Assembly: GCA_016192705.1 (NCBI GenBank)
Contig: JACPTQ010000050.1
Span: forward strand, 1 to 64,000
Length of the DNA stretch: 64,000 nt
Direction of reading: 5' to 3'
Source: Deltaproteobacteria bacterium
GTDB taxonomy: Bacteria > Myxococcota > JACPTQ01
Below the pieces are notes generated by a model. It had not been told where the DNA came from and ran no database searches. It saw nothing but the letters and a program-made list of their open reading frames with translations. Position 1 is the first letter of the stretch. Each line of letters opens with the position of its first letter. Both the position numbers and the translations under genes were made by a program. Positions 21,646 through 62,441 of the stretch are shown in pieces.

Positions 21646-21884
21646 CCCTTGCCTTTGTCGGGTCGGTCGCTCGCGGGTGCCTTCTCAAGCGCGTCGAGCG
21701 CCGCTTCGGTTGCGCGTTGCTTTAGGGCGATGCGCGCCACGAAACCAACGACGACCGCGACGATAACGGCGTACGCGATCACGAGGAGCAGCCCACCCGG
21801 GACTTCTTCGTGAAGCCCCGTCGCGACTTCGGTCATCTTCATGTCGCGATCCTGCGTGACGAGGGCGAGCAAAAGTTCGATCAT
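21642..21884 (-). CDS. CcmD-like small membrane protein
   Basis: 80 residues: short N-terminus, one membrane helix (GGLLLVIAYAVIVAVVVGFVARI), then a charged helical tail (LKQRATEAALDALEKA). CcmD proteins are small single-pass partners of the CcmABC heme exporter. The assignment rests on size, topology and its place directly after ccmC (ATGA overlap at 21884), not on a conserved motif. Confidence 0.65.
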   Translation of the reverse strand: MIELLLALVTQDRDMKMTEVATGLHEEVPGGLLLVIAYAVIVAVVVGFVARIALKQRATEAALDALEKAPASDRPDKGKG

Positions 21885-22579
21885 GCGTTTGACCTCATGG
21901 CGCGCGTGACTTCGAGGGCGTGGACGCGGTTTTGCGTGCGCTCGGCGCCAACGCGGGCGAGTAAAAGGGTAACGAAAAGGAGCGCCTCAAAGGTGAGCGT
22001 CGCCCATAGCGCGTCCTCCATTTCGGGGTGAAGGTTCGAGCCAAAGCCGTCCTTCTGCATGACGATTGGGTGCTGCCCGCCCCACAGCTCAACGGAGAAA
22101 TGGATGATCGGAACGTCGATCGCGGCGAGGATGGCGAGCCCGGCGCCGATGCGACGGCCGGTGTCGCGCCCCTCGGAGAAACGGCGCATCGCGTGATAGG
22201 CGACGAAGGTGAGCCAAAGGATGAAGGTCGACGTGAGACGCGGGTCCCAAACCCAAAAGACGCCCCACGCCTTTCGGCCCCAGAGCGGGCCCGTGATGAG
22301 GACAATCGTACAAAAAACGAGAACGAGCTCCGCGGCTGAAACGGCCCATTCATCAAAGACAACTTTTCGTTTGATGAGATAGAGGAGGCTTGCCGCGAAC
22401 GTGACGCCGACCGCGACGAACATCATGAAGGCGGCTGGAACGTGAAAATAAAAAATCTTTTGGACGACGCCCATGCGTGCTTCGATGGGTGCGTCGGCGA
22501 CAAAGTAGGCCGCGACGCCGAGAGCGATAATCGTCAGGGCCGCGAAGCTTATGGTCGCTGTCGCAAGTTTCGATCGCAT
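21881..22579 (-). CDS. ccmC: heme exporter / cytochrome c biogenesis protein CcmC
   Basis: 232 residues with six probable membrane helices. The tryptophan-rich heme-binding (WWD) segment is present as WGVFWVWDPRLTS, flanked by histidines (YFHVPAAFMMF early, and IIHFSVELWGGQHP late), as expected for CcmC/CcsA proteins that handle heme for cytochrome c maturation. No ccmA, ccmB or ccmF is visible in the window. The first eight codons and 58 bases upstream are part of the 83-bp direct repeat (22555-22637), whose other copy lies at 27226-27308, so an insertion has separated this gene from its former upstream neighbour, the esterase. Confidence 0.92.
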   Translation of the reverse strand: MRSKLATATISFAALTIIALGVAAYFVADAPIEARMGVVQKIFYFHVPAAFMMFVAVGVTFAASLLYLIKRKVVFDEWAVSAAELVLVFCTIVLITGPLWGRKAWGVFWVWDPRLTSTFILWLTFVAYHAMRRFSEGRDTGRRIGAGLAILAAIDVPIIHFSVELWGGQHPIVMQKDGFGSNLHPEMEDALWATLTFEALLFVTLLLARVGAERTQNRVHALEVTRAMRSNA

Positions 22580-22637
22580 CGTGGAGTTTCTAACTGATTT
22601 GGTGCGCTGTCACAACTGAGGCTTCGGGTGCGCGAGC
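22555..22637. repeat. 83-bp perfect direct repeat, copy 1
   Basis: Identical over 83 bases to 27226-27308. It spans the first codons of ccmC, the spacer, and the last codons plus stop of the esterase gene (here only as a fragment). The two copies bound a 4.67-kb acquired unit and mark the original esterase-ccmC junction. Confidence 0.97.
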
Positions 22638-23047
22638 GAAATGGGGAGCGCCTGTTTACAGAGCGCGAACCCCACCACTTCGTCCGCTTCCACGGCGTCC
22701 TCGCTCCGAACTCGAAATGGCGAAGCTGCGTCGTCCGTGCGCTAAGAGTCCGGAAGCCGATCGAGAAAGCACTCGCGCCGTGCACCGCCCCAGCGACTTC
22801 TCCCGTCCCACTCTCCGCGCCCACACAGGCGAACGTACCCACCCCCGTCTCGTCTACCGTTTCTGGGACCGGCGCCATCACTCCAACCTCCCTCAGCGCC
22901 CAGCGCCACGCGCTTGACCACGACACCCCCTTGCGTTTCCTATCCTTCGCATCGAAGTCGCAAGCCCGCTCCCCGACGACATGCAAAGCACGTGGGCACG
23001 CGACATATAGCTTAATTCATCCTCGGAACTCGACGAAATCCGTGTGA
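22638..23047 (+). pseudogene. transposase remnant (IS91-like C-terminal fragment)
   Basis: A plus-strand frame reads HFVRFHGVLAPNSKWRS, which resembles the conserved RYHGVLAPxxxxR block of IS91-type (Y2, rolling-circle) transposases. The surrounding sequence loses the pattern, and no full-length gene exists. It lies directly inside the left 83-bp repeat. Bases 22892-22949 recur at 26162-26219 with one mismatch. Family assignment is from memory of the motif, not a search. Confidence 0.55.
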
Positions 23048-23069
23048 ACCACTCGCGGTGTCTTGCCCA

Positions 23070-25268
23070 TCATGGCAAGCGATTGTGCGCGGTGTTGGTC
23101 GCCGTTAACCTTTTCGAGGCTGGACAGCCGCCCGTTCGCGGAAACGCAAAATACTCAAAGACCGGCCCCTGGTTCTCCCCGAACGCGTTTCGCGCGGCGA
23201 CGCGCACGTAGTTCGTGCGGCACGGCTGGAGCCAAACAGTCTGCCTCGTCGTCGCATCCCAGTTTGTCAGTTGAGGCGCTGGATCGTTCGGCGCCGTGGA
23301 ATAACGTACCTGATAATCGTTCGCCCTCAGCACGGCTCCGTACTCCACATAAAACTCCTCGGGCGCGTACTGTCCCGGCGCACCAGCGCTCGAGTCACGG
23401 CTGCCCTGGCTTGCGCCGCCGCCCGCGCTCTCGACATAATTCACCGCGGTCATCATCGGCCCCGTGTAGACCTGAACAAACGTCGTGAAGATTGTCGTGA
23501 CGGACGGCAATCCAGGAAGACAATTTCCGGCGTCATCGACCGGCACATACCGATACTCGGGTCCCGTCGTGGTTCCATACTCGTTCGTCGTCTTGACGTG
23601 GAGGTAATACGCTTTGCATGGTTCAAGACCAATTCCTCCGAAGGACGTGTATTGGCTTGTTGGAGCAAAGCGCGTGAAGGGCGCAGCGCTCCCATCTTCC
23701 GGTCGAATCCAAAGCTGGTACGAATCGACGTTGGCGACCTCCGAAAAACTAACCCGGCTCAGACTCCAATCGCTGGTCGCGGATTCGGTTTTCGCGTTCA
23801 AGATCCGTGAAGCTCCAGCGCCGCAATCGAGCGAGGCCAAGTCAAAAGGCACCTCCCCGGATCGTGCGAGCCGAGCCTTCACATAGCACTGGAAACGCCG
23901 CGTCCCGCAGAACATCGGGTAGCCTTTAACATTCTTCGCGCACTCTTTCTCCCAGAAACTCGCCCACACCGACTTAACGTCGTGCGCGCTCGATCCTGCC
24001 CGCGTCACCATCTCGAGCATCGCATCGAGCGGCGGGAGGTTCGCCCATTCGGCGCCGAAATGAGCGAGATAATCGTCCGTGAGTGAGCTTGCGGGCCGCC
24101 ACGTGTCTCGTCCAGCGATGATCGTCGCGTAAAAGTCGGCGACGTTCCCCTCGTCGTCGAGGCCAAAATTCCGATTCGCGTCTTTGCAGTTGAGCGCCGG
24201 CACCTTGTACTTGAGCGAATAGTTCTGGTTCGAATAGATTCCCCAAAGGACACTCGAGAACGCCTCAGCGTACCCTTCATACTGGGCGAACGCGTAACCG
24301 AGGTTTGTCGAGCACGGCGTATGGTTGTGCAGGTAGTTCGGGATATCGCCCCAATAGTGGTTCTCATCCGAGTGACGAACGTTGTACTGAACATGCCCGA
24401 GTTCGTGCGCAAGGTTCCACATGTTTTGCACCCACGAGGCGTCCTGGATTTGCGCGTCGGTCATTCCAGCGGAGGCGACAACGTTCTGCTTCATATGGAC
24501 CGTGGTCCAGGCCGTCGACGGCGATCCGAACATCGGGTTGTTGATGATCCACGACGAAAAATACGGGAACTGCGCGCGAATCCCGTCGCGCAGAGTGCGA
24601 TACGCCAAACTCACGCCCTCCATGGTCGCGGCTGCCCAATCGTCGTTCGTCGCGCCCGCGCCGGCCACTCCACGACCGAGTTGAAACGATCCAAAATCGA
24701 CGACCGATTGACCCGGCGTCAGATTAATCCAGGGGGAGCCCCAGCGATAAATCTTCGGTCCCATCTTCATGAGCTGGGCGACGACGACGATGCCGCTCCC
24801 GAAACTTGCCGCGAGCGTAACGAAGTCTCCCGTCAGCAAGGCCGCGAGGAGTTGCGGGCCGACGGACGCAATGGCCGACCACCAAAATCCCGCCTCATCA
24901 AAGGTCCCGACCGAAAAGCCGAGCTCGCTCACGCCCTCAGCTTCGAAGTAGAGCGTGGGGGGCTGGTTGGGCCCGCAGTTGACGTCACCGTTGATTTCGC
25001 CGCGCGTGTTGGTGAAAAACGTTCCGCAATAGATGGGGCCGAAGGTGCCCGGTTGATAGACGACGACCCTCTGGTGCGAAGCGGGTGTCCAGCCCTGCTC
25101 GCTCGCGGGCGACATGGAGCGGTCCCGCACCTTTGTTCCGGAGTCGTCCGTGACGTACCAGACGGGTCGATACAGCCGCGCTTTAACCTGGACCTGACCT
25201 GCATCGGCTATCCCCAAATGGAAAAGTATGCCTCCCGAGAGCGCCAACCAACCCGCAAAACGGTTCAT
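23070..25268 (-). CDS. secreted gluzincin-like metalloprotease with C-terminal beta repeats
   Basis: 732 residues with a signal peptide (LALSGGILFHLGIADAG). A zinc motif HELGH lies at residues 288-292 (WNLAHELGHVQYN), followed about 40 residues later by EGYAEAF, which supplies the typical third ligand of gluzincins. A hydrophobic stretch (about 125-170) precedes it. The C-terminal 250 residues contain two or three fibronectin-III-like repeats (ANVDSYQLWIRPEDG, PCKAYYLHVKTTNEYG, PCRTNYVRVAARNAFGENQGP). Likely an extracellular protease. It lies inside the unit bounded by the 83-bp repeats, so it is probably acquired. Its start overlaps the stop of the next upstream gene (ATGA). Confidence 0.75.
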   Translation of the reverse strand: MNRFAGWLALSGGILFHLGIADAGQVQVKARLYRPVWYVTDDSGTKVRDRSMSPASEQGWTPASHQRVVVYQPGTFGPIYCGTFFTNTRGEINGDVNCGPNQPPTLYFEAEGVSELGFSVGTFDEAGFWWSAIASVGPQLLAALLTGDFVTLAASFGSGIVVVAQLMKMGPKIYRWGSPWINLTPGQSVVDFGSFQLGRGVAGAGATNDDWAAATMEGVSLAYRTLRDGIRAQFPYFSSWIINNPMFGSPSTAWTTVHMKQNVVASAGMTDAQIQDASWVQNMWNLAHELGHVQYNVRHSDENHYWGDIPNYLHNHTPCSTNLGYAFAQYEGYAEAFSSVLWGIYSNQNYSLKYKVPALNCKDANRNFGLDDEGNVADFYATIIAGRDTWRPASSLTDDYLAHFGAEWANLPPLDAMLEMVTRAGSSAHDVKSVWASFWEKECAKNVKGYPMFCGTRRFQCYVKARLARSGEVPFDLASLDCGAGASRILNAKTESATSDWSLSRVSFSEVANVDSYQLWIRPEDGSAAPFTRFAPTSQYTSFGGIGLEPCKAYYLHVKTTNEYGTTTGPEYRYVPVDDAGNCLPGLPSVTTIFTTFVQVYTGPMMTAVNYVESAGGGASQGSRDSSAGAPGQYAPEEFYVEYGAVLRANDYQVRYSTAPNDPAPQLTNWDATTRQTVWLQPCRTNYVRVAARNAFGENQGPVFEYFAFPRTGGCPASKRLTATNTAHNRLP

Positions 25269-25666
25269 CGATTCTTATTCTCCTCTCTCTGATTGTCCAC
25301 ACGTCGTTCGATTCGTTCGTCGTTCAATTGCTCGTTCAGCCGGGCGATCCGGACATCCTCGGCCCTGAGATACCGAACGACTTCAACATCGGAAGGCCTA
25401 GCGTTCAGCGGGGTTGCGAGGAGCGCCCTGTACTCCTCGAAGACCGGCTGTGGTAACCCTGAGATCGGTTCGACGTCGCCCGCGATGGCCGTGTTGGCTG
25501 CGACCGGCCTTGCGATTCCGATTTCTGATCGTGCGGGTTCTCCGCCTGTGGCGGACCTGCCCGTTTCGCTCAGGAGAACGAATGCAACGGCGACAGCCAG
25601 TGCCAACAGGGCGAACGCGACCACGAGCACCATCGGGCGCGTTATTCTTTGCAAGGTTAGTCTCAA
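25265..25666 (-). CDS. small single-pass membrane protein upstream of the metalloprotease
   Basis: 133 residues from TTG 25666 (GGAG six bases upstream); ATG at 25633 is an alternative. One membrane helix (MVLVVAFALLALAVAVAFVLL) is followed by a polar, mostly helical tail rich in Arg, Asn and Glu. No family recognised. Its stop overlaps the metalloprotease start as ATGA, so the two are co-translated; it might be an anchor, inhibitor or chaperone for the protease (inference). Confidence 0.6.
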   Translation of the reverse strand: MRLTLQRITRPMVLVVAFALLALAVAVAFVLLSETGRSATGGEPARSEIGIARPVAANTAIAGDVEPISGLPQPVFEEYRALLATPLNARPSDVEVVRYLRAEDVRIARLNEQLNDERIERRVDNQREENKNR

Positions 25667-25796
25667 GGAGGACTCCGAGTACGCACGTTCCGAGCCATCG
25701 GGCTGCGATGAGAACTCAAGGGGAAAGGCGCCTCACGATCGTTCAGGTTTTGGCCGGCCGTTCTGTTTCTAGACGGCTGCTCCACATGTCCGAGAG

Positions 25797-25880
25797 GGAC
25801 AGGAAACTGACCGTCTATTTCGCTAGCGGTGTCATAGGTCAGGGAAAGTGACCGCCTAACTGCTCAGGGAAAGTGTCCGC
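25797..25880. repeat. insertion-sequence end with short tandem repeats
   Basis: Three imperfect copies of a CAGGGAAAGTGACCGCCT-like unit (near 25802, 25838 and 25862) follow a small palindrome TGTCCGAGAGGGACA. The block sits directly upstream of the truncated transposase gene and looks like the terminal region of an IS element. No matching right end is visible. Confidence 0.5.
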
Positions 25881-25897
25881 CTGTATAGAAGGAGGAC

Positions 25898-26125
25898 ATG
25901 GAAACAATGAGCGAGAACCAATGGAAGCGAATCGAGGCGTCGAAAAGGGTGACAAGAGGCGAGTGGACGGCCCGAGAAGGGGCTGCCGCGGTGGGGTTTT
26001 CGGAGCGCCAGTTTCGACGTGTTCGGAAGAAGGTGAAGGAGCGTGGAGCTTCTCGCAACCCCTCCACGCGCAGCCCTGAAGTTTCGGGCACGGCACTCGT
26101 GTCTCAAGAACTCGCGACCTCATGA
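25898..26125 (+). pseudogene. truncated transposase (N-terminal helix-turn-helix only)
   Basis: 75 codons from ATG 25898 with a strong AAGGAGG ribosome-binding site. MSENQWKRIEASKRVTRGEW followed by AAAVGFSERQFRRVRKKVK is the N-terminal HTH typical of IS481/ISNCY-type transposases (normally 400 residues or more). The DDE catalytic part is absent: the frame stops at 26125 and the following DNA has no transposase similarity. A dead IS fragment. Confidence 0.7.
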
Positions 26126-26501
26126 AGGTCCGCCGTGACTCCCCCGCCTCGACTGCCGATTCTCAGCGCCCAGCGCCACGCGCTTGACCACGACACCCCC
26201 TTGGGTTTCCTATCCTTCGACTCCGGAGAAGGAGCCGACGCCGACGACGTCGGGCATCTGCTCCAGGCGCAGGCGGAACGAATCGGTCGACGCGGGGCTG
26301 AGTGGCGCGTTCACTTCGGTGCTGCGGTGAGCCCGGCAAGGTCTGTGCCCTGCTGAGGCGTCGAGCGTTCGGTTGGTTAGCGTGGTGTGCCTGTAGGCTC
26401 GACCGGTGATCTGTATGCTCCAGCAAACACCAGCGCTCGGTTCATCCAATGGCCGGTCAGCGCCGTTTTGATCACGAAGTCGGCCCGCGATCGCACCGAT
26501 G
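26126..26501. other. gene-free stretch with internal repeat
   Basis: 376 bases without a credible gene. It holds the second copy (26162-26219) of a 58-bp sequence also found at 22892-22949 (one mismatch), linking the two ends of the acquired unit. The remainder shows no recognisable signal. Base composition resembles the kinase gene that follows. Confidence 0.6.
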
Positions 26502-27191
26502 TCATGCGTGGCGGATGGTGCACGAGGGCGCACGCGGATCGTCGTTGTGAACGATCGCGTCGGCGAGCGATTGCGGTTGTACCTCGGCGAAGTACAGCCG
26601 TTGGCCGGGAACGTACTTCTCTTGGTAGCGCCGGCGTACTTGCTCCGCGGAGCCGAACAGCTTCTGATCACGAGCGACCGCTCGGCGAATCGTGACTTCG
26701 AAGTCGACACTGACGAAGATGCGGTAGTCCCAACAGTCGGTCAGCTCGGGGCGCAGGAGGAAGATGCCGTCGAACAGCAGGATGTCATCGGCTCGAGCCG
26801 TTTGCTCGGGCGCGTGTACACGCGCGTCGCGTCGATGATCGAAGACTGCCACGCGATATCGCCTGCTGCCCGCCTCGCCGAGCGGTTCGAGCAATTGCGA
26901 TCGAAGCTGCGGATAATCGAACGAGTCGCGGTAGAACGCTTCCGCGGTGTCGCCGTAGCGGGCATGCCGCTGCTCGCGCGAGCGGTGGAAGCCGTCGATA
27001 CCTGCGCGGATCACCCGGAGGCCCGGTGCATCGATCCGCGCTGCCAAATCGTCGGCCAACGTGGTCTTGCCGGCAGCGTCGGGTCCGTCGATGGCCACGC
27101 GCGTCGGGTGATCGATCCGCAGCGCAACGATCGGATCCGAGAGTTGGTCGAGGACCCGCGCCCGCGCCGCGGACTCGTGCGCCACGGTCAC
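26502..27191 (-). CDS. uridine kinase-like P-loop phosphotransferase
   Basis: 229 residues from GTG 27191. Walker A is VAIDGPDAAGKTTLADDLA; DGFHRSREQRHARYG is the uridine-kinase/phosphoribulokinase lid region, and DDILLFDGIFLLRPEL is a Walker B-like strand. The family phosphorylates nucleosides or similar hydroxyl substrates; the true substrate is unknown. The style resembles actinobacterial homologues, and it lies inside the 83-bp-repeat-bounded unit, so transfer is likely. Its GTG overlaps the TGA of a 20-codon chimeric frame that starts at the duplicated ccmC ATG (27250), so it could be translated by coupling. Confidence 0.8.
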   Translation of the reverse strand: MTVAHESAARARVLDQLSDPIVALRIDHPTRVAIDGPDAAGKTTLADDLAARIDAPGLRVIRAGIDGFHRSREQRHARYGDTAEAFYRDSFDYPQLRSQLLEPLGEAGSRRYRVAVFDHRRDARVHAPEQTARADDILLFDGIFLLRPELTDCWDYRIFVSVDFEVTIRRAVARDQKLFGSAEQVRRRYQEKYVPGQRLYFAEVQPQSLADAIVHNDDPRAPSCTIRHA

Positions 27192-27225
27192 GGCCCCGCG
27201 GCCTTGGCTCGTCGAGCGCCGGAGC

Positions 27226-27308
27226 TCGCTGTCGCAAGTTTCGATCGCATCGTGGAGTTTCTAACTGATTTGGTGCGCTGTCACAACTGAGGCTTCGGGT
27301 GCGCGAGC
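27226..27308. repeat. 83-bp perfect direct repeat, copy 2
   Basis: Identical to 22555-22637. This copy contains the true 3' end of the esterase gene (stop at 27281-27283) and a duplicate of the ccmC start (ATG at 27250 plus seven more codons) before the sequence diverges into the kinase region. Confidence 0.97.
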
Positions 27309-28249
27309 AAGAAGTCGATGAGGCCGCGGCGAAACGCGTCGCCGATGAGCGGGATGTGGCCAGCCCCTTGGAGCGACCAAAGTTCCGCAACGGAGGACGC
27401 ACGACAACCGCGGGCGTATCGCGCGATACGCGTTTCATCGCCGGGGAGGGCTGTTTCGTAATCGCGTGGGGGGTCGCTTTGGTCGAGCGCGGACTCGTCG
27501 CAGCCATTGAGCGTCGCCCAGCGTCGGGTGGTCTCTTCGGCTCCCGGAAAGCCGCTCGGGAGTCCGCCGTACGGGACGACCGTGTCGCGCGTGCCGTGGA
27601 TCTGAAGGACGCTGACCGGTGCCGAGGGGTGACAGCGTGTCGGGTCGAGCCACGTTTCGCCCGCAAGCGAGGCGATGCCCGCGATGAGGTCGGCGTGGTC
27701 GCAAGCGGCTCGGTGCGCCATGAAGCCACCGTTCGAATGGCCAACAAGATAGATGCGCTTCGGATCGACGCTCCAGCGGGACATGACGTCGGTGATGACG
27801 CGACGAAGATAAGCCGAGTCGTCGACGCCGGTCTGGGTTCCGTCGCAGCAAAAATCGGTCGCGTTCCAAAATCGAACACCGAAGCGGTCGACGGTGCCGT
27901 CAACGAGGACGTAGAGCGCGCCGCGCTCTGCTGCGACGGGTCGCAGTTGGAGATAAAGCTCTTGAAGCTGGCCGCTCGCGGTAAGTCCGTGGAGAAGGAT
28001 TATGAGGGGTGCGGGCACTCTGGACGAATAGCCGGGTGGCTCGAAGACGAGCGCGGGGCGGTCGATGCCACCGATCGGGCCGAGCGGAAGGGCCGCGTCG
28101 GGAATGGTTGCGGGCGGGGGTGTGGGCGCGGATTCGGCAGCAGGAGCGGGCGCGGAAGTTAGATCTGGACCAGCGCACCCGAGCATGGCGAGCGGCGATA
28201 AGATCGTTACGCCAAACGCAACCAAGAACTTGTTGAGGTGCCCTCTCAT
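27281..28249 (-). CDS. lipoprotein esterase, PHB-depolymerase/LpqC type
   Basis: 322 residues from ATG 28249, chosen because it places a lipobox (LSPLAMLGC) at a normal distance. A Pro/Ala-rich linker leads to an alpha/beta-hydrolase: oxyanion strand PLIILLHGLTASG, nucleophile elbow YLVGHSNGGFMAHR, acid region IHGTRDTVVPYGG, and the catalytic His in LQGAGHIPLIGD. Such proteins cleave polyester or acyl esters outside the membrane. The last eight codons lie in the 83-bp repeat; before the insertion this gene was followed 30 bases later by ccmC. It diverges from alr. Confidence 0.87.
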   Translation of the reverse strand: MRGHLNKFLVAFGVTILSPLAMLGCAGPDLTSAPAPAAESAPTPPPATIPDAALPLGPIGGIDRPALVFEPPGYSSRVPAPLIILLHGLTASGQLQELYLQLRPVAAERGALYVLVDGTVDRFGVRFWNATDFCCDGTQTGVDDSAYLRRVITDVMSRWSVDPKRIYLVGHSNGGFMAHRAACDHADLIAGIASLAGETWLDPTRCHPSAPVSVLQIHGTRDTVVPYGGLPSGFPGAEETTRRWATLNGCDESALDQSDPPRDYETALPGDETRIARYARGCRASSVAELWSLQGAGHIPLIGDAFRRGLIDFLLAHPKPQL

Positions 28250-28287
28250 GATCGGTACGACTTTCGAACTTCCTTCGCGTGGAGTCA

Positions 28288-29427
28288 ATGGCCCATGCTA
28301 TAGAAAAATGCGTGTCGATTCGCCCAACCCTTGCTGAAATCGATCTGGATGCGCTGGTCCACAACTTGGCGACGGTGCGCTCCGTGCTCCGCCCCGGCGT
28401 TGGTGTTTGCGCGATGGTCAAGGCGGACGCGTACGGCCATGGCGCGGTCGAGGTCGCGCGGGCGCTCGAGTGGGCGGGTGCCGAGTTTATGGGCGTTAAC
28501 CTTGTTGAGGAGGGGCTCACGTTGCGCGAGGCGGGGCTCAAATCGCGCATTCTGGTGCTCGGCGCCTGGTATGCGCACGCGCACGCCGACGTCGTTGCGC
28601 GGGATCTCACGCCCGTCATCTCAGATCTCGCGGATCTCGCCGAGTTTTCGCGCATCGCAGCGCCCGGTCGTGCTCGCGTGCATCTCAAGTTCGACACAGG
28701 GATGGGTCGGCTTGGTTTTCCGAGCGCCGCGGTGCCGTCGATTCTGCGCGCGCTGGGCCCGTTAACAAACGTTGAGGTCGAAGGCGTTCTGTCGCATCTG
28801 GCGGGCGGTCGCGAGGAAACGGAGGCGCAAGCGAAGAGTTTCGACGCCGTTGCGCGCGAACTCGCCGGGGGCGGGGTACGACCGGCCTTTTTGCACCTCG
28901 CCAACAGTGAGGCAATTTTTTCGCGCTCAGACCTCCACCACAGCTTGGTGCGCCCCGGGATTGCGCTGTACGGATACGCGCCCTGGAGCGATGCGCCGCG
29001 TGATGCCGCGGCCGCGCTGCGACCGGTCATGCGCGTCACCACCGAGATCGCCCACGTCAAGCTCGTGCCGACCGGCGCGCGCGTGTCTTACGGTGGGCAG
29101 TTCGTTGCGTCGCGACCGACGCGCGTTGCTGTTTTGCCGGTTGGGTACGCCGACGGATTTGCCCGGGCGCTCTCGGAGCGCGGTGGATTTGTCGTCATTC
29201 ACGGTCTGCGCGCGCCGATTGTGGGCGCCGTCTGCATGGACATGATGATGGTCGATGTGACCGACATCGCGGCTGCGCAGGTTGGCGATCGCGTGACGCT
29301 CATCGGCGACGGGCTGTCGGCGGCGGACCATGCGCGCTTACTCGCGACCATCCCGTATGAGATCGTCACGCGCGTGTCGGTGCGGGTGCCGCGCGTCATC
29401 GTTCGCCCTGGCGGTGGCGCGCCGTGA
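28288..29427 (+). CDS. alr: alanine racemase
   Basis: 379 residues from ATG 28288 (GGAG three bases upstream). The family core begins at RPTLAEIDLDALVHNLATVR, so a GTG at 28312 is an equally plausible start; a TATAGA at 28299 could be a -10 box for that shorter form. PLP enzyme making D-alanine for peptidoglycan: the PLP lysine is in CAMVKADAYGHGAVE and the second catalytic Tyr in GARVSYGGQFVASRP. The stop overlaps the mlaE start as GTGA. Confidence 0.95.
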   Translation: MAHAIEKCVSIRPTLAEIDLDALVHNLATVRSVLRPGVGVCAMVKADAYGHGAVEVARALEWAGAEFMGVNLVEEGLTLREAGLKSRILVLGAWYAHAHADVVARDLTPVISDLADLAEFSRIAAPGRARVHLKFDTGMGRLGFPSAAVPSILRALGPLTNVEVEGVLSHLAGGREETEAQAKSFDAVARELAGGGVRPAFLHLANSEAIFSRSDLHHSLVRPGIALYGYAPWSDAPRDAAAALRPVMRVTTEIAHVKLVPTGARVSYGGQFVASRPTRVAVLPVGYADGFARALSERGGFVVIHGLRAPIVGAVCMDMMMVDVTDIAAAQVGDRVTLIGDGLSAADHARLLATIPYEIVTRVSVRVPRVIVRPGGGAP

Positions 29428-42972: not shown

Positions 42973-43008
42973 ATTGAAAATCACCTGCCGCGATGCGGCG
43001 ATTGACAA

Positions 43009-43814
43009 CCCTGATTCCCGGATAACGGGCAACATTTGCGTGGGGCGGGCGGGGTCTGGGCTCGCTTCGGCTCGCAAAAGTTCTCGGGTCTGACATAAAG
43101 TGTGAGTCTGCACGAAATGAATCAAACATCATGAGAACGGCAATTCCACGCCCCATCGGCACCTCATCCCCTGCACAGAGGTGCGTTGCGGGCTGCGCGG
43201 CACCGCCGCGACACCAAGTTCGGTCTAGCACATCCTGCATTTGCAACTCCGAGCACACAAAGGTCTCGGGTGTTCCGTCGCCCTCGCGATTCTGTTCGCG
43301 TTGGCCCGGTGTAGACTTCGGGCTCCCATTCGGTCGCCCTCGCCATTCCCGCCACGCGCTCATGCCGCTGGCATTCGCGCAGATTGTGGCGAGAATAGCC
43401 ACTGGCTTGCCAACGATTGCTCACAGAATATGCGAGCCTCTGATTGCCCAATCCCCGACCGCCCAACCAGGACCCGGCCGTTTTCCTGGAACGACGGTTA
43501 GGAGACTTGGGGGTCGATCGATCGTCAGCCGGCACCCAGCGGGTGAACTCTTCGTACCGCCCTAAAGCCCCAAAACACGTCCCCGGAAAGCGGTCCGCCC
43601 GGATTAGCGTGGGGTCGGCAGGGGCGCCGCAGAGGCGCGCATCCGCAGGGTCTGCAGCGCGATATCCGATGGGAATCTCCGAGATTTCGCACGCCACAAA
43701 ACAGTGGTTCGAGCGCTCGTTCGCGTTCAGACCCGAGGACGTCGGCGCGCCGAAGCGGGCTCCTGTCGACCCTCACGCTCACGAGCAAACGAACCGCTTA
43801 ACCGGGAATCACGG
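43009..43814. mobile_element. non-autonomous inverted-repeat element, copy B
   Basis: Ends CCCTGATTCCCGG (left) and CCGGGAATCACGG (right) are inverse complements with one mismatch. Exact eight-base direct repeats ATTGACAA lie outside at 43001-43008 and 43815-43822, as expected of a target duplication. The interior shares long blocks with copy C (ATGAATCAAACATCATGAGA, the GCACCTCATCCCCTG region, and CAGACCCGAGGACGTCGGCG). No transposase frame is present. It occupies most of the gene-free stretch 42973-43870. Confidence 0.8.
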
Positions 43815-43815
43815 A

Positions 43816-43845
43816 TTGACAACGCCGGCCGCTTTCCCGTATTCT
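43816..43845 (+). promoter_or_regulatory. sigma-70-type promoter for the Hcp-like gene
   Basis: TTGACA (43816-43821), 18 nt, TATTCT (43840-43845), about 25 bases before the ATG at 43871. The -35 box lies within the direct repeat created at the right edge of mobile element B. Confidence 0.6.
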
Positions 43846-60617: not shown

Positions 60618-60697
60618 CGAATACGCTTTCAACACCTACATTGTAGCTGGGAAGGCGCTCGTGCGGCAATGATTGGCCGCTTGACGCGACGACGCCG

Positions 60698-61133
60698 ATC
60701 CCCGGTTAAGCGGCCAAGACCAGCGTGGGGCGGTCGGGCTTGGGCTCGCTCCGGCTCGCAGAAGTCCTCGGGGCTGACATGAAATGTTAGTCTGCACAGA
60801 ATGAATCAAACATCATGAGAACGGCAATCCCGCGCCCCATCGGCACCTCATCCCCTGCGCAAAGGTGCGCTGCGGGCTCCGTTCCGTCGCCCTCGCGATT
60901 CTGTTCGCGTCGGCACGCCACAGGCCTGCCGACCATCGCTCACAGAATATGCGAGCCTCCGCTTGCCCAATCCCCGCCCGCCCATTCAGAACCCGGCCGT
61001 TTTCCTGGAAGGGCGGTTCAAAGACTTGGGGGTCAATCGCACGTCTTAAATCAGACCCGAGGACGTCGGCGCGCCGAAGCGGGCTACTGTCGACCCTCAC
61101 GCTCGAGAGCGAACGAACCGCTTAACCGGGGAT
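60698..61133. mobile_element. non-autonomous inverted-repeat element, copy C
   Basis: Perfect 16-bp terminal inverted repeats ATCCCCGGTTAAGCGG (60698-60713 and, inverted, 61118-61133), extending imperfectly to about 80 bp. A 17-bp direct repeat GACGCGACGACGCCGAT flanks it (60683-60699 and 61138-61154). The interior shares blocks with copy B. No coding capacity. It fills most of the gap 60618-61207, which has no gene. Confidence 0.82.
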
Positions 61134-61207
61134 GAAGGACGCGACGACGCCGATTTGCCTCGACCTGCTCGTTCCCTTAACCTGTTGACGAGGCGAAAAA
61201 AAACCGC

Positions 61208-62342: not shown

Positions 62343-62441
62343 TGGCGGAGGCGCATGGGAATCGAACCCACCAAGCGCGGCTGTTACACCTGCCTCACCG
62401 GTTTTGAAGACCGGGCGGGCCACCAGGCCCAACGCACCTCC
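62343..62441 (-). tRNA. selC: tRNA-Sec (selenocysteine), anticodon TCA
   Basis: 99 bases including an encoded CCA. Eight-base-pair acceptor stem GGAGGTGC/GCGCCTCC, extended D stem (GGGCC...GGCCC), anticodon loop CTTCAAA with TCA at 62407-62405, long variable arm, and T arm GTGGGTTCGATTCCCAT. The long acceptor, long D stem and large extra arm are diagnostic of tRNA-Sec and exclude a suppressor-type tRNA. It reads UGA as selenocysteine and needs SelA, SelB and SelD, none of which is in the window. Confidence 0.93.

What the first reader, a model, noticed from the sequence alone, without database searches (positions are those of the whole stretch)
22555..27308. 4.67-kb acquired unit bounded by perfect 83-bp direct repeats splitting an esterase-ccmC gene pair
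The two 83-bp copies are identical and each spans the esterase 3' end, spacer and ccmC start. Removing one copy plus the interior restores esterase-(30 bp)-ccmC. The interior holds two kinds of transposase debris, a secreted gluzincin-like gene pair and a uridine-kinase-like gene. An 83-bp duplication is far too long for an ordinary IS target site, so recombination of a circular or tandem intermediate is more likely; identity implies a recent event.
Basis: partly seen in the sequence, partly recalled or inferred. Interest (0 to 1): 0.72.

Follow-up and report, generated by a model that had tools for sequence, protein, structure and literature searches.

The report
Gene insert flanked by 83-bp repeats
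A 4.6-kb block of acquired genes, bordered by worn-out pieces of an IS91/ISCR-type mobile element, sits between two bacterial genes and duplicated 83 bp of the landing site; a second block built the same way lies elsewhere in this genome, so the arrangement recurs, though probably by ordinary DNA recombination rather than by a new kind of mobile element.

Summary
Copies 22555-22637 and 27226-27308 are identical over 83 bp, and removing one copy plus the interior restores esterase-30 bp-ccmC. No integrase was found in the insert.

The interior is a mosaic: half of a lineage-specific dispersed palindromic repeat; a Y2 (IS91/ISCR) transposase fragment ending in an oriIS-like end; a secreted HExxH protein pair; a second oriIS-like end in the same orientation; and a P-loop kinase. 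Two direct oriIS ends around cargo is the published ISCR 'sandwich'.

New here: a second locus (contig C10) has the same order, with oriIS end - NmrA gene - oriIS end - sister kinase between about 318-353-bp, 94% direct repeats copying another gene's 3' end. These are the only two copies of this kinase in the genome, and none was found in 192 other phylum genomes.

The left junction lies in a 10-bp microhomology (background 3.5e-4), and the genome lacks Ku. Best reading: an ISCR-sandwich segment inserted by host recombination that duplicates the target, either a microhomology-circularised fragment integrating by single crossover (E. coli precedent) or replication template switching. Without sister strains or reads, the empty site, the circle and the absence of an artefact are unproven.

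The parts
22555..22637 (.). left copy of the 83-bp direct repeat; flows into complete ccmC on its left
   Evidence: 100% identical to 27226-27308
22628..22637 (.). 10-bp microhomology GTGCGCGAGC shared by esterase 3' end and the dispersed palindromic element
   Evidence: same 10-mer precedes AAATGG in element copy L032; such 10-mers occur at 3.5e-4 per position outside the element
22638..22676 (+). 3' half (second hairpin) of a dispersed palindromic element; its first hairpin is cut off by the junction
   Evidence: up to 46/46 identical to other genomic copies; covariance model hit 56 bits
22676..22735 (+). fragment of Y2 (IS91/ISCR-type) transposase, HFVRFHGVLAPNSKWRSCVV
   Evidence: 70% identity to residues 369-388 of the intact G051 transposase; NF052416 hit
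22892..22949 (+). oriIS-like 3' end a of an IS91/ISCR-like element, ..TTGCGTTTCCTATCCTTCG
   Evidence: shared end with C31, C47, C10 a/b and 26162-26219
23070..25268 (-). 732-aa secreted protein with HELGH...EGYAEAF (gluzincin-like by motif only); no relatives found
   Evidence: ORF; no match in 195 phylum genomes, Pfam, NCBIfam or PDB
25265..25666 (-). 133-aa protein with N-terminal hydrophobic segment; overlaps the start of the 732-aa gene
   Evidence: ORF
25898..26125 (+). N-terminal HTH fragment of an ISNCY/IS481-like transposase, preceded by two AGGGAAAGTG(A/T)CCGCCT copies
   Evidence: NF033594 8e-4, HTH_28 1e-4; similar to G026 C261
26084..26219 (+). second IS91/ISCR-like 3' remnant with oriIS-like end b (26162-26219)
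   Evidence: 79% over 138 bp to C31:198-334, which follows a Y2 transposase C-terminus; 98% to end a
26502..27191 (-). 229-aa P-loop (uridine-kinase-like) kinase, sister to the C10 copy
   Evidence: PF00485 5.8e-8; sister relation 100/99
27226..27308 (.). right copy of the 83-bp direct repeat; flows into complete esterase on its right
21881..22579 (-). ccmC, left flank, intact
   Evidence: TIGR01191 1.5e-37
27281..28288 (-). esterase, right flank, intact
   Evidence: NF050058 1.7e-35

Best explanation
A segment carrying an IS91/ISCR-style sandwich (oriIS-like end - cargo - oriIS-like end) plus a kinase was inserted between esterase and ccmC by host recombination, with duplication of 83 bp of target, not by a transposase acting on the unit's ends. 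Most likely route: a linear piece of DNA carrying the unit joined to the esterase-ccmC junction was closed into a circle through the 10-bp microhomology between the esterase end and a hairpin-forming dispersed repeat, and then entered by one crossover in the 83-bp homology. Replication template switching at that hairpin is the near-equal variant. All inserted genes lie in the direction esterase to ccmC, and both host genes stay whole because each copy of the repeat restores one of them. Shown: anatomy, target duplication, oriIS-like ends, microhomology, a second unit of the same build. Inferred: circle or template switch, recency, order of events.
For: Perfect 83-bp repeat spanning two gene ends. 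Oriented oriIS-like ends at 22949 and 26219 that end at the same base pattern as C31, C47 and C10 copies, C31/C77 and C47 lying behind Y2 transposase C-termini. Literature: ISCR27 oriIS GCGGTTGAACTTCCTATACC (PMC8894482) and ISCR sandwich of cargo between two oriIS (PMC12772301). Left junction within 10-bp microhomology, background 3.5e-4. Experimental precedent in E. coli: linearised, re-closed plasmids integrating by single crossover left duplications of 109-950 bp beside the insert (PMC3240628). No Ku gene. No recombinase domain in the insert's longer ORFs. Second unit at C10 with about 318-353-bp, 94% repeats.
Against: No donor, circle or empty site was seen. The right junction cannot be tested for microhomology because the donor sequence is unknown. 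83 bp is short for RecA-dependent crossover. Both known units carry the sister kinase at the same end, 9-35 bp from the right repeat, which random host recombination does not predict. The transposase behind the oriIS-like ends is only fragmentary, and terIS was not found.
Confidence: 0.55

Rival explanations
1. Replication template switching (MMBIR/FoSTeS-like): the fork stalls at the palindromic repeat, copies the unit from elsewhere in the same genome or a sister chromosome, then switches back 83 bp behind the start, leaving the overlap as a direct repeat.
For: 10-bp microhomology at a hairpin-forming repeat found dozens of times in this genome; no Ku; insert GC 0.613 equals flanks 0.613 and 0.619, so a local donor is plausible.
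Against: No second copy of the interior remains in the genome as template; the right junction cannot be checked.
Confidence: 0.3
2. Site-specific island without its own integrase: the 83-bp repeats are attL/attR of an element that enters at gene 3' ends and is moved by an integrase encoded elsewhere.
For: Repeats restore a gene 3' end, as attachment sites often do; two units share build and right-end gene.
Against: No integrase in the insert; the repeat runs 25 bp into ccmC; the C45 and C10 repeats share no sequence (296 of 500 shuffles as good).
Confidence: 0.08
3. A kinase-bearing mobile unit with fixed right end (kinase start) that integrates with long target duplications; oriIS ends and kinase are its parts.
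For: Both copies of the kinase family in the genome sit after a second oriIS-like end and 9-35 bp from the right repeat; they are sisters, 100/99.
Against: Only two cases, with unrelated left ends and unrelated sequence between oriIS and kinase; kinase relatives elsewhere have no IS91 transposase or long repeats beside them.
Confidence: 0.12
4. Assembly artefact: junctions are chimeric or a strain mixture in a metagenome bin.
For: Draft genome of 88 contigs; reads not available; some contigs end in the dispersed repeat.
Against: Two contigs overlap by exactly 141 bp, pointing to a k=141 assembly that would span an 83-bp repeat; the left junction shares only 10 bp with the repeat, too short for a graph misjoin; the interior carries half of this genome's own dispersed repeat and oriIS-like ends.
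Confidence: 0.08

Closest known systems
ISCR/IS91 rolling-circle elements and ISCR sandwich structures (e.g. ISCR28-sul4, ISCR27-blaNDM)
   Same: Y2 transposase remnants, 3' ends resembling oriIS (TTGnnyTTCCTATnCC), cargo between two direct oriIS ends
   Different: No intact transposase found in this genome, terIS not found, and long outer direct repeats that rolling-circle transposition does not make
Duplication by re-circularised DNA and single crossover (E. coli, PMC3240628)
   Same: Foreign DNA flanked by direct repeats of variable length (109-950 bp there; 83 and about 353 bp here) of target sequence
   Different: Natural loci, no circle observed, homology shorter than in the experiment
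Integrase-driven genomic islands with attL/attR at gene 3' ends
   Same: Direct repeats that restore a gene 3' end
   Different: No integrase found, and the repeats of the two units are unrelated in sequence and length

Membership tests
IS91/ISCR element | Y2 HUH transposase | tested here: inconclusive
   Only fragments in G000 (C77, C47, C45, C31); PF04986 search empty with silent control
IS91/ISCR element | conserved oriIS 3' end downstream of the transposase | tested here: met
   Shared end TTGCGYKTCYTATCCTTYG in C31, C47 and C45 a/b, related in C10; resembles ISCR27 oriIS
IS91/ISCR element | terIS at the other end | not tested
   5' parts are missing from the remnants; no search for terIS was made
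IS91/ISCR element | insertion without target duplication | tested here: not met
   The outer unit has an 83-bp duplication, so the outer insertion is not filed as ISCR transposition; applies to the unit, not to the inner ends
ISCR sandwich | two oriIS in the same orientation around cargo | tested here: met
   22892-22949 and 26162-26219; C10 134638-134763 and 135951-136076
Integrase-driven genomic island | tyrosine or serine integrase in the unit | tested here: not met
   No such domain in the insert's longer ORFs
Composite or IS-made transposon | intact flanking IS and short target duplication | tested here: not met
   IS pieces are internal and broken; duplication is 83 bp
Recircularised fragment plus single crossover | target duplication of variable length with one illegitimate joint | tested here: met
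   83 bp and about 318-353 bp; 10-bp microhomology at one joint of C45
Recircularised fragment plus single crossover | circular molecule | not testable with these tools
   needs PCR or reads

The most novel reading that the evidence does not exclude
The C45 and C10 units belong to one recurrent kind of mobile unit, [oriIS end - exchangeable cargo - oriIS end - kinase], that lands at ends of operon genes with long duplications of the target, so that both neighbouring genes stay whole.
Probability: 0.13. Interest if true: 0.65.

Novelty: new variant of a known kind. Interest (0 to 1): 0.36.

Why it matters
It shows how cargo caught between ISCR-type ends can end up fixed in a chromosome, in an operon and without breaking either neighbour, in a lineage with no intact copy of the transposase found. 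If the two-locus pattern is a rule, it would be a new way of capturing and landing genes; if not, it is a clear natural example of duplicative insertion by host recombination.

Tried and rejected
Searching for gluzincin relatives: none in genome contigs, 195 phylum genomes or PDB; the single-sequence fold of its catalytic part was useless (pLDDT 33). A shared attachment sequence in the two outer repeats: rejected. Homology between the stretches separating oriIS and kinase in the two units: rejected. The kinase as a general IS91 partner: rejected, no transposase or long repeats near relatives L171-L213. A RAYT (Y1) transposase for the palindromic repeat: none. Ku-dependent end joining: no Ku. 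Known RNA family for the palindromic repeat: none. Esterase-ccmC order in relatives by DNA: no match covers the junction, as all relatives are only of the same phylum.

Full report
OBSERVATION. The two 83-bp copies at 22555-22637 and 27226-27308 are identical and 4671 bp apart. Each contains the first 25 bp of ccmC, the 30-bp spacer and the last 28 bp of the esterase. The left copy runs on into complete ccmC and the right copy into the complete esterase, so the ancestral order esterase-30 bp-ccmC follows directly. Gene identities are supported by family models. The 83-mer occurs nowhere else in the genome.

WHAT THE INSERT IS MADE OF. Immediately after the left copy (22638) stands the second half of a dispersed element that forms two hairpins. 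Copies up to 46/46 identical lie at more than 30 other places in the genome. Next comes a 20-residue piece of a Y2 transposase, 70% identical to an intact relative in genome G051 that is itself ISCR clade Ia (NF052416 3.6e-94, PF04986 3e-25). Then a 58-bp stretch ends ..TTGCGTTTCCTATCCTTCG at 22949, and a 98% identical copy stands in the same orientation at 26162-26219. The same end occurs at C31 and C47, where it follows Y2 transposase C-termini, and in related form twice at C10. It resembles the oriIS of ISCR27, GCGGTTGAACTTCCTATACC, which lies 236 bp behind the transposase stop (PMC8894482). I therefore read both stretches as oriIS-like ends of IS91/ISCR-like elements. Between them lie, on the minus strand, the 133-aa and 732-aa genes. 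The latter has HELGH and EGYAEAF but no family, structure or genome match. An ISNCY/IS481-like HTH fragment precedes the second end. Right of it lies the kinase (PF00485), whose start codon is 35 bp from the right copy. Two direct oriIS ends around cargo is the sandwich described for ISCR28 and sul4 (PMC12772301).

A SECOND UNIT. A scan of 1.95 Mb of stitched contigs found one comparable locus. At C10 134188-141093, direct repeats of about 318-353 bp (94.7% over 318 bp) copy the 3' end and downstream spacer of an 858-aa secreted-protein gene. The left copy flows into the next co-directional gene and the right copy into the 858-aa gene. An IS1-like transposon with TSD AAGCCCTT later split the right copy. 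Inside lie the last residues of a Y2 transposase (17-bp exact match with C31 at the equivalent place), an oriIS-like end, an NmrA-family gene, a second end (126 bp, 100% identical) and a kinase whose start is about 9 bp from the right repeat. The C45 and C10 kinases are the only two in the genome, are sisters with 100/99 support, and are nested among Chloroflexota sequences. No relative at E below 1e-30 was found in 192 other genomes of the phylum. The order repeat - oriIS - cargo - oriIS - kinase - repeat thus occurs twice with different cargo. The two outer repeats share no sequence.

HOW IT PROBABLY GOT THERE. No recombinase domain was found in the insert's longer ORFs, and 83 bp is not a transposase-type duplication. 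The left junction falls in a 10-bp identity, GTGCGCGAGC, between the esterase end and the dispersed repeat. Such 10-mers occur at 3.5e-4 per position outside the repeat. The genome has no Ku (the control rang in Bacillus subtilis), so classical end joining is unlikely. Two routes remain. In E. coli, linearised DNA that was trimmed and re-closed integrated by a single crossover and left duplications of 109-950 bp of the target next to the foreign DNA (PMC3240628). Alternatively, a replication fork stalled at the palindrome could have copied the unit and returned 83 bp upstream. Both yield this product and neither was observed. I give the first a slight edge because it is experimentally documented in a bacterium and accounts for repeats of different length.

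ARTEFACT. Reads are not available. Two contigs (C77 and C31) overlap by exactly 141 bp, which points to a final k of 141, longer than the repeat. The left junction shares only 10 bp with the dispersed repeat, too little for a graph misjoin. The insert carries this genome's own repeat and ends, and its GC (0.613) equals that of the flanks. An artefact is unlikely but not excluded.

THE DISPERSED REPEAT. A model of 30 copies predicts 25 base pairs, 13 of which show changes on both sides that keep the pair. It finds about 59 separate copies in 1.7 Mb and none in 145 other genomes of the phylum. No Y1 (RAYT) transposase and no Rfam family accompany it. It also sits inside the Y2 transposase remnants at C77/C31 and C47.

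NOVELTY. Each ingredient is known: ISCR ends and sandwiches, and duplicative insertion through circles or template switches. The combination, and its recurrence with a sister kinase in one genome, is unusual. With two cases it is a lead, not a rule.

Noticed in passing
L068:1189-8094 (contig C10 134188-141093): Second unit of the same build: about 318-353-bp direct repeats around oriIS end - NmrA gene - oriIS end - kinase; the right repeat is interrupted by an IS1-like transposon (136889-140747) with TSD AAGCCCTT.
   Followed up: yes
window 22638-22676, 43308-43398, 60862-60950; L027, L029-L058 and others: Lineage-specific dispersed two-hairpin element of about 85 bp, about 59 copies in 1.7 Mb, with compensatory changes in 13 of 25 pairs; absent from 145 other phylum genomes; no RAYT in the genome and no Rfam match. 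Some copies contain tandem GA mismatches in the outer stem (CGCGAGC/GCGAGCG).
   Followed up: partly
L214 (C77 34662-35090), L048:1-332 (C31), L215 (C47): Y2 transposase remnants of this genome each carry one or two of the dispersed two-hairpin elements inside the gene; several contigs end in such an element.
   Followed up: partly
window 43004-43827 and 60688-61152; C44, C46, C64: Another dispersed repeat family with about 28-57 BLAST matches in the 1.95-Mb sample (GTGGGGCGGTCGGGGTTGGGCTCGCTCCGGCTCGC..).
   Followed up: no
window 41636-41743/42873-42981, 42667-42717/44780-44830, 51434-51479/52514-52559: Three further direct-repeat pairs (109, 51 and 46 bp, 94-98% identical) spaced 1-2 kb; the 51-bp pair lies near gene ends of two putative secreted-protein genes.
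   Followed up: no
window 62347-62441: Selenocysteine tRNA (RF01852, 76 bits), so the organism probably makes selenoproteins.
   Followed up: no
window 25840-25884: Two copies of AGGGAAAGTG(A/T)CCGCCT 25 bp apart, apparently an IS terminus copied next to itself, found nowhere else in the sampled 1.95 Mb.
   Followed up: no
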